Source: Tubulanus polymorphus (taxonomy: Eukaryota; Nemertea; Palaeonemertea; Tubulaniformes; Tubulanidae). Taken from it: a stretch of DNA of 64,000 nucleotides. The DNA is taken from positions 31,186,650-31,250,649 of the forward strand of contig NC_134026.1 in assembly GCF_964204645.1 (NCBI RefSeq). The letters are read 5' to 3'. The position numbers and the translations under genes are program-made. Each line of letters opens with the position of its first letter. Position 1 is the stretch's first letter. Shown here piece after piece: positions 12,742 to 15,700 of the stretch. A model generated the notes under the pieces. It did not search any database and was not told the origin of the DNA. It saw only the letters and a program-made list of their open reading frames with translations.

Positions 12742-15700
12742 ATGTCTGATTTCCTGGAAAGCGAAGCCGAAGAATCGGAAGAGGAAGAATTAGAGGAAGG
12801 AGGAGTGAAGCCATCAGCTACGTCGTCGAGGAGGAATATTATATCTGATGATGATGAAGAGGAAGAAGAAGATGGTATGTTCGTCGTCCGTCTGCTGCGA
12901 TTTCAAATTTTATGAATTTTGGATAAAATATCGGGAAAATTAAAAAACTATTGATTTATAGATGAGGAGAAAATCCGAGAAGAGATGAAAGATTTGATAA
13001 ACGATGAAGAAGAGGAAGAAGAAGATGAAAGCGGAGATGACGAGGAAAGGAAGGAGGGCAAACGTAAACTCGATTCAGATTTAGACGATCAGTTGGAAGA
13101 GGAAGATTACGATTTAATCGAAGAAAATCTCGGAATTAAAGTTAAACGGAAAAAGGTAAACATCTCCACCTATCTCAAGAAACTTTGATATCTCAATTAT
13201 GAAATCTTTGATATCTCAATTATTATTAATTCATTAATATCTCCATTATTATATCTCCAATATCTCAAAATTAGAAAGTCATTGATATCTCAATCACGAA
13301 TCTCATTGATATCTCAATTATAAACTCATCGATATCTTGATCATGAATCTCATTGATATATCGATCATGAATCTCATTGATATCTCAATTATAAACTCAT
13401 TGATATCTCGATCTCTTTTTTCACATTAACTCAATAAGCATGTAAGTATTTAATGTGCTTATTCTCAGTTATATTTCAGTTTTTATTTATTTAAGTCCTG
13501 TTCATGTTGAATATTTTATATCTGAATGTCGTCTCCGTCGTTTATGAGTTATTTAACTTTCTATAAAATGATGATTCTAAAAATGAACCGAATCTTCTGA
13601 ATTCAGCAAAAACGTAAGAGAATTCGAATGATGTCGGATGATGAGGGAAGCGGAGAGGAAGGAGATAACGCGGAGGAAACCGGTAGAGATGCAATCGCTA
13701 CCGAACTATTCGACGGAGACGAAGATATGGACGCAGTCTCCGAACGACCGAAAGATGTCGGAGAAGTTGAAAATGAATTTGGAGATTTATCGGCGGAAGA
13801 GGAAGAATCAGGTTGATATCGATATATCACTATTGAGCTTCACTTAATGATATATCAATCATCAATAATGATATATCAATGATTGCTCGTGATATATCAA
13901 TCACTGATCATGATATATCATTCATTGGTTATAATATTTCAATCACTGATGATGATATATGGCTTACTGATACTGATATATCAATCACTGATACTGATAT
14001 ATCAATCATTGATAATGATAAATCAATCATTGATAATGATATATGTGTTTGTGTATATTACAGATGTAGATGATTTTATTGTTGATGAGGAGGGTCAACC
14101 AATCAGTAGAAAGGGAAAGAAAAAACGACATATAATTCACAATGACAGGTAATTATTGTTATTTACTGTAGTGAAGACGTTCGGAACGCACTGTGAATTG
14201 TATTTTAAACTGTGTGTCTATTACAGGACGTTACAACAGGCTCAGGATATTTTAAACTGTGTGTCTCTTACAGGACGTTACAACAGGCTCAGGATATTTT
14301 AAACTGTCTGTCTCTTACAGGACGTTACAACAGGCTCAGTATATTTTAAACTGTCTGTCTCTTACAGGACGTTACAACAGGCTCAGGATATTTTAAACTG
14401 TGTGTCTCTTACAGGACGTTACAACAGGCTCAGGATATTTTAAACTGTCTGTCTCTTACAGGACGTTACAACAGGCTCAGGATATTTTAAACTGTCTGTC
14501 TCTTACAGGACGTTACAACAGGCTCAGTATATTTTAAACTGTCTGTCTCTTACAGGACGTTACAACAGGCTCAGGATATTTTAAACTGTGTGTCTCTTAC
14601 AGGACGTTACAACAGGCTCAGGATATTTTAAACTGTGTGTCTCTTACAGGACGTTACAACAGGCTCAGGATATTTTAAACTGTCTGTTTCTTACAGGACG
14701 TTACAACAGGCTCAGGATATTTTAAACTGTCTGTTTCTTATAGGACGTTACAACAGGCTCAGGATATTTTAAACTGTCTGTCTCTTACAGGACGTTACAA
14801 CAGGCTCAGGATATTTTAAACTGTCTGTCTCTTACAGGACGTTACAACAGGCTCAGGATATTTTAAACTGTGTGTCTCTTACAGGACGTTACAACAGGCT
14901 CAGGATATTTTAAACTGTCTGTTTCTTACAGGACGTTACAACAGGCTCAGGATATTTTAAACTGTGTGTTTCTTACAGGACGTTACAACAGGCTCAGGAT
15001 ATTTTAAACTGTGTGTTTCTTACAGGACGTTACAACAGGCTCAGGATATTTTAAACTGTCTGTCTCTTACAGGACGTTACAACAGGCTCAGGATATTTTA
15101 AACTGTCTGTTTCTTACAGGACGTTACAACAGGCTCAGGATATTTTAAACTGTCTGTTTCTTACAGGACGTTACAACAGGCTCAGGATATTTTAAACTGT
15201 CTGTTTCTTACAGGACGTTACAACAGGCTCAGGATATTTTAAACTGTCTGTTTCTTACAGGACGTTACAACAGGCTCAGGATATTTTAAACTGTCTGTCT
15301 CTTACAGGACGTTACAACAGGCTCAGGATATTTTAAACTGTCTGTTTCTTACAGGACGTTACAACAGGCTCAGGATATTTTAAACTGTCTGTTTCTTACA
15401 GGACGTTACAACAGGCTCAGGATATTTTAAACTGTCTGTTTCTTACAGGACGTTACAACAGGCTCAGGATATTTTAAACTGTCTGTCTCTTACAGGACGT
15501 TACAACAGGCTCAGGATATTTTCGGGGTCGACTTTGATTTCGACGAATTCAAACAATACGGCGATGATTATGACGAAGAGGAAGAATTAGAAGAGGAGGT
15601 AAATATTTCATCATCATCATCATCATCATCATCATTCGTCTAGACCGTCGGTGTTCTAGACCGACCGTAGGTTCTAATCGATTGTTTTCTTCAACAGTAC

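What the first reader, a model, noticed from the sequence alone, without database searches (positions are those of the whole stretch)
14196..15520. Twenty-eight exact-period copies of a SUPT6H 3' splice site
The 47-bp unit contains a complete acceptor (pyrimidine tract, CAG) and the first 27 exonic bases. First and last acceptors are exactly 27 x 47 bp apart. Every copy but the last would cause a frameshift or a TAA when used, yet the gene is essential in animals. Splicing must choose the last of 28 near-identical acceptors, or nonsense-mediated decay must remove the rest. Scanning from the branch point would normally favour the first AG.
Basis: partly seen in the sequence, partly recalled or inferred. 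Interest (0 to 1): 0.85.

Follow-up and report, generated by a model that had tools for sequence, protein, structure and literature searches.

The report
Repeated splice acceptor in essential gene
An essential animal gene (SUPT6H) carries one of its splice-acceptor sites 28 times in a row, and only the last copy gives an intact protein; such "mirage" repeats are already known from lancelets, so this is an extreme new example and a ready-made test of how the splicing machinery chooses between equal sites.

Summary
Window 14201-15522 holds 28 acceptor copies exactly 47 bp apart, across the intron 4/exon 5 boundary of a single-copy, intact SUPT6H gene (33 exons, 1714 aa, no stops; about 61% identical to human SPT6). 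Only copy 28 (exon start 15496) gives SPT6; the other 27 lead to premature stops. Seven upstream copies are letter-identical to copy 28, and copy 28 is among the weakest by a rough score, so the acceptor sequence itself cannot decide. The most likely decision is exon definition: only copy 28 lies 103 nt from the exon's donor and next to its GAA/GAG-rich stretch; wrong products would go to NMD. No RNA evidence exists here; use of copy 28 is inferred. The array looks like a slippage product: a 6-bp TATTTT lies at both ends of the unit, in a minisatellite-rich region. It is not unique: a mirror case (nine donor copies) lies at 34458-34944, minus strand, and a two-copy case in RECQL4 elsewhere in the genome. 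This is a known kind: "mirage" minisatellites of lancelet genes, reported not to disturb splicing; human CBS 844ins68 is a single-duplication analogue. New here: copy number, uniformity, essential host gene.

The parts
12742..26023 (+). SUPT6H gene (CDS span), 33 exons, 1714 aa, intact; last three exons near 25.1-26.0 kb are the least certain
   Evidence: spliced alignment, no stops, GT-AG at all 32 introns; PDB human SPT6 match E 0
14064..14148 (+). exon 4, donor cag|GTAATT
14149..15495 (+). intron 4 if copy 28 is used (1347 nt; 78 nt if copy 1 were used)
14201..15522 (+). 47-bp x 28.1 array, each unit holding an acceptor plus 27 exonic bases
14201..14206 (+). TATTTT, left end of the microhomology
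14227..14227 (+). first exonic base if acceptor copy 1 is used; highest rough score of the 28
15496..15598 (+). exon 5 proper (103 nt), starting at acceptor copy 28; GAA/GAG-rich 3' part; donor gag|GTAAAT
15517..15522 (+). TATTTT inside exon 5 (codons of D-I-F), right end of the microhomology
34458..34944 (-). second junction-spanning array: 57-bp unit with nine copies of a donor; only the first (intron start 34929) keeps the frame
16047..16319 (+). array starting exactly at the donor of SUPT6H intron 7: GTCAGTCGACTC seven times, but without the exonic CAG in later copies

Best explanation
The array is a 'mirage' minisatellite: a tandem expansion of an intron-exon boundary. A slip or unequal exchange between two TATTTT hexamers, one in the intron and one in the exon 47 bp further on, duplicated the acceptor of a 78-nt intron; later unequal exchange in blocks grew it to 28 copies. 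Because only the last copy is continuous with the rest of exon 5, the gene survives if splicing joins exon 4 to copy 28. Mechanism, inferred: exon definition. U2AF/U2 at copy 28 is stabilised across a 103-nt exon by U1 at the exon-5 donor and by SR proteins on the GAA/GAG-rich stretch that only this copy has next to it; the 27 upstream copies would define exons of 150-1372 nt with no enhancer nearby and no internal donor. Products of upstream copies carry premature stops and would be removed by NMD. Shown: anatomy, uniqueness, intact gene, frames, identical copies, microhomology. Inferred: that copy 28 is used, exon definition, NMD.
For: Only copy 28 gives the conserved [17 protein letters not shown] of SPT6; gene single-copy and intact over 33 exons, so it must be spliced correctly at least partly. 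Copies 4, 6, 8, 13, 14, 19 and 24 are letter-identical to copy 28, so the decision must come from outside the unit. Exon 5 downstream of the unit has 12 GAA/GAG/AGA triplets, the unit none. The mirror array on the minus strand needs the opposite end (first of nine donors), and both cases fit one rule: the pair of sites closest across the exon. Precedents: lancelet mirages do not disturb splicing by RT-PCR (PMC3087553; PMC3902484); CBS 844ins68 uses the distal copy (PMC2630376); exon-proximal sites are favoured when flanking introns are long (PMC9225289). Origin: 6-bp TATTTT at both ends with no further homology; random seeding of the gene's nine arrays would give about 2 junction-spanning ones, one is seen.
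Against: With copy 1 the intron is 78 nt, in the range this gene uses most (74-110 nt; median 128), and the intron after exon 5 is only 99 nt; short introns favour the upstream acceptor. Copy 1 scores highest by a rough matrix of this gene's acceptors and copy 28 lowest equal (10.5 against 3.5). In the mirror case the first donor is also the strongest (8.5 against 6.2), so strength alone could explain that one. No RNA data were available.
Confidence: 0.62

Rival explanations
1. Intron definition with NMD clean-up: upstream copies, chiefly copy 1, are used most of the time, their transcripts are degraded, and a minority spliced to copy 28 suffices.
For: 78-nt intron to copy 1 and its highest rough score; human data show an upstream preference in short introns; 26 of 27 stops lie 124 nt or more before the exon-5 end, so they would be classical NMD substrates, and many further introns follow.
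Against: Costly for an essential gene; in lancelet mirages and CBS 844ins68 regular splicing was reported.
Confidence: 0.22
2. The array is a regulatory device: its copy number or factor-dependent acceptor choice tunes SUPT6H level through a poison-exon-like product.
For: All wrong choices give premature stops; copy number in mirages is polymorphic in lancelets.
Against: Random seeding of minisatellites accounts for the number of junction-spanning arrays; such arrays occur in unrelated genes; no conservation could be tested.
Confidence: 0.05
3. Assembly or collapse artefact: the true allele has one or few copies.
For: Reads could not be examined.
Against: Seven unit types in a non-periodic order, unique flanks, a 31.9-Mb contig, and the same kind of array in two further genes.
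Confidence: 0.05
4. Recursive splicing, internal mini-exons or a local RNA fold that hides copies 1-27.
For: None found.
Against: The junction is AG|GA, so no donor is regenerated; the best donor-like site in the array scores 2.45, below the weakest of the gene's other 31 donors (2.51, median 7.4); predicted accessibility of copy 28 is within the range of the others.
Confidence: 0.02

Closest known systems
Mirage minisatellites of amphioxus genes (Adh3, Canestro et al. 2002; globins BflGb6/BflGb9, PMC3087553; troponin C, PGBD5, PMC3902484)
   Same: Tandem minisatellite-like copies of an intron-exon boundary, at acceptors or donors, with splice signals in the copies and a functional gene
   Different: 28 copies at one exact 47-bp period with 98% matches, against 3-6 copies of 81-100% identity in BflGb6; host gene is a core transcription factor; organism not identified, but 268 Mb with about 11 large contigs does not look like Branchiostoma (own knowledge)
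Human CBS c.844_845ins68
   Same: Duplication of a 3' splice site with the start of the exon; the downstream copy is used and the upstream one removed (PMC2630376)
   Different: One duplication of 68 bp in a polymorphic allele, not an array
Human CBS 31-bp VNTR, c.1444_1467+7 (16-21 copies)
   Same: VNTR whose unit holds 24 exonic and 7 intronic bases, so it multiplies a donor (nomenclature in PMC2630376)
   Different: Donor, not acceptor; compares with the minus-strand array 34458-34944
Variable internal tandem repeats at exon-intron boundaries in human segmental duplications (PMC2812944)
   Same: Minisatellites at boundaries lengthen introns or create new ones
   Different: Few copies, recent paralogues, often with both isoforms seen

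Membership tests
Mirage minisatellites | tandem minisatellite-like array | tested here: met
   47 bp x 28.1, 98% matches
Mirage minisatellites | unit spans an exon-intron boundary of a real gene | tested here: met
   20 intronic + 27 exonic bases of SUPT6H intron 4/exon 5
Mirage minisatellites | copies carry splice signals | tested here: met
   28 of 28 have YAG with a tract
Mirage minisatellites | regular splicing is not disturbed | not testable with these tools
   no RNA data; only the intact gene argues for it
Mirage minisatellites | copy number varies between haplotypes | not testable with these tools
   one haplotype, one locus
Mirage minisatellites | several genes of the genome affected | tested here: met
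   34458-34944 minus and RECQL4 in L021
CBS 844ins68-like duplicated acceptor | only the downstream copy preserves the coding sequence | tested here: met
   27 of 27 upstream copies give a stop
CBS 844ins68-like duplicated acceptor | the downstream copy is the one used | not testable with these tools
   needs RNA
Recursive splicing (ratchet points) | acceptor followed by a donor, AG|GT | tested here: not met
   AG|GA in all 28 copies; no usable donor
NAGNAG tandem acceptors | acceptors 3 nt apart chosen in the second step | tested here: not met
   47-nt spacing

The most novel reading that the evidence does not exclude
The spliceosome picks the last of 28 near-identical acceptors in an essential gene purely by position relative to the exon, overriding both a 78-nt intron and a stronger first site; the genome tolerates many such mirages because exon definition is dominant even in a short-intron animal.
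Probability: 0.4. Interest if true: 0.7.

Novelty: new member of a known kind. Interest (0 to 1): 0.5.

Why it matters
Experiments on competing splice sites use designed minigenes with two equal sites. Here nature made a series: seven upstream competitors are letter-identical to the required site, in a gene the animal cannot lose. In the same window a second array poses the mirror question for donors. If long-read RNA shows the exon-proximal copy at both, exon definition outweighs intron definition in genes whose introns are mostly short; if not, NMD carries a heavy load in an essential gene. It also shows how a 78-nt intron can become 1347 nt by slippage, and warns annotators that gene finders may place such junctions wrongly.

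Tried and rejected
Local RNA structure as the selector: accessibility of copy 28 lies within the range of the others. Recursive splicing or internal exons: no AG|GT and no donor. Pseudogene: the gene is intact and single. Skipping exon 5: frameshift and stop. Splice-site strength as the selector: copy 28 scores lowest equal (matrix of only 31 sites, rough). Excess of junction-spanning arrays over chance: none, about 2 expected and 1 seen of 9 in this gene. More exonic than intronic constraint between copies: 4 variable sites in the intronic part, 1 in the exonic part, too few to say. Identifying the organism: COX1 not found in the assembly and a paper search by assembly size gave nothing. Canestro et al. 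2002 is not held in the library, so it is cited through PMC3087553.

Full report
What is there. TRF reports one array at 14201-15522, period 47, 28.1 copies, 98% matches, no indels. All 28 acceptor copies are spaced by exactly 47 bases. The unit is AAACTG[T/G]..CTTACAG followed by GACGTTACAACAGGCTCAGGATATTTT: 20 intronic and 27 exonic bases. Seven unit types occur in a non-periodic order (abcdbdcdbbefddbeggdeeeedeeed), and four-letter blocks recur within the right half, as expected from block-wise unequal exchange. Variation is low: 24 variant cells at five sites of 47.

The gene. The exons around the array match human SPT6 (E 2e-96). A spliced alignment of the region, guided by a human SPT6 sequence that I supplied from memory, gives a complete gene at 12742-26023: 33 exons, 32 GT-AG introns, 1714 aa, no stop, 1008 identities in 1651 aligned residues. 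The model, not the guide, was then checked against the PDB: the first 1506 aa match human SPT6 chains at E 0, 2035 bits. The last exons (25.1-26.0 kb) are the least certain.

Consequences of each acceptor. Spliced from exon 4, copies 1-26 read into TAA 73 nt later, copy 27 shifts the frame and stops after 139 nt, copy 28 gives [19 protein letters not shown]..., the conserved SPT6 sequence. Skipping exon 5 shifts the frame; keeping intron 4 gives a stop at once.

What can decide. Copies 4, 6, 8, 13, 14, 19 and 24 equal copy 28 letter for letter. With a rough matrix from the gene's other 31 acceptors, copy 1 scores 10.5 and copy 28 scores 3.5, lowest equal. Accessibility by local folding does not single out copy 28. 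What copy 28 alone has is the rest of exon 5: a donor 103 nt away scoring 10.4 (median of the gene 7.4) and twelve GAA/GAG/AGA triplets, of which the unit has none. Hence exon definition is the most economical selector. Against it: the intron to copy 1 would be 78 nt, a normal length here (74-110 nt is the commonest range), and in human data short introns favour upstream acceptors while long flanking introns favour the exon-proximal ones (PMC9225289). Which force wins is an empirical question; I put exon definition first because of the precedents below.

Origin. The intron has TATTTT at 14201 and exon 5 has TATTTT at 15517; collapsed to one copy they are 47 bp apart, and there is no further homology on either side. 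So a single slip or unequal exchange between these hexamers made the first duplication from an ancestral 78-nt intron. The window is rich in minisatellites: 37 arrays of period 20 or more and 2.5 copies or more in 64 kb, against 11 in 30 kb at 0.7 Mb from three contig starts, none in 20 kb of two mid-contig pieces and 13 in 207 kb of exon-centred loci. The window lies about 0.65 Mb from the end of its contig, so a subtelomeric excess is plausible but the sample is small. Most long SUPT6H introns are long because of arrays. Random seeding of the gene's nine array regions would make about two span a junction; one does. No special targeting of splice sites is needed.

Other cases. On the minus strand, 34944-34458, a 57-bp unit repeats a donor nine times. 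Only the first donor (intron start 34929) keeps the frame; donors 2-9 read a TGA directly after the true exon end. The last donor would give an 86-nt intron, the first a 542-nt intron, so again the needed copy is the one closest across the exon. Here the first donor is also stronger (CTAG|GTGAGT against CTCG|GTGAGT). This gene has no Pfam match for the tested part; a tectonic-domain stretch lies downstream at 29730-30851. In L021 (contig C63) a 60-bp unit repeats the acceptor of a RECQL4 exon; of the two complete copies (exon starts 2117 and 2177) only the second yields DMKSEGISTLLCYLELH, as in human RECQL4.

Comparison with what is known. Tandem repeats spanning intron-exon boundaries were named mirages in amphioxus Adh3 and then found in globins, troponin C and PGBD5; RT-PCR indicates that they do not disturb splicing, and copy number differs between haplotypes (6 and 3 units in BflGb6) (PMC3087553; PMC3902484). 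Human CBS 844ins68 is a single duplication of a 3' splice site in which splicing strongly favours the distal copy, and the CBS 31-bp VNTR spans an exon end (24 exonic and 7 intronic bases by its name) (PMC2630376; that paper calls the sites donors, but the intron 7/exon 8 boundary is an acceptor, as in the title of Romano et al. 2002). So the finding is a new and extreme member of a known kind. All anatomical defining features were tested and met; undisturbed splicing and polymorphism could not be tested. The organism was not identified, so whether this extends mirages beyond cephalochordates is open; assembly size and number of large contigs argue against Branchiostoma (own knowledge).

Verdict. 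No statement here about actual splicing rests on RNA.

Noticed in passing
window 34458-34944, minus strand: 57-bp array with nine copies of a splice donor, mirror image of the SUPT6H case; only the first keeps the frame.
   Followed up: yes
L021:2060-2205 (G000 contig C63): 60-bp repeat spanning the acceptor of a RECQL4 exon; two complete acceptors, followed by GTATCA, so the first could also act as a ratchet-type site.
   Followed up: partly
window 16047-16319: Array begins exactly at the donor of SUPT6H intron 7; GTCAGTCGACTC occurs seven times but only the first follows exonic CAG.
   Followed up: partly
whole window; L072-L076: Minisatellites seem much denser near contig ends than in mid-contig or exon-centred samples (37 per 64 kb against 0 per 20 kb and 13 per 207 kb).
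   Followed up: partly
window 12742-26023: Most SUPT6H introns over 250 nt are long because they hold tandem arrays; exons hold almost none (30 of 5145 bases).
   Followed up: yes
window 57599-58754, 44686-45258 and 48796-50194: Further large arrays (60 bp x 19, 36 bp x 16 and 31 bp x 45), relation to exons not worked out.
   Followed up: no
window 36417-37589, minus; 56412-56876, minus: Exons of a CWC25-like splicing factor gene and of a kinesin motor gene (Pfam matches).
   Followed up: no
G000:C10:8114542-8115012 and C36:93057-93527: Kinase matches with identical scores on a large and a small contig, possibly an allelic duplicate contig in the assembly.
   Followed up: no
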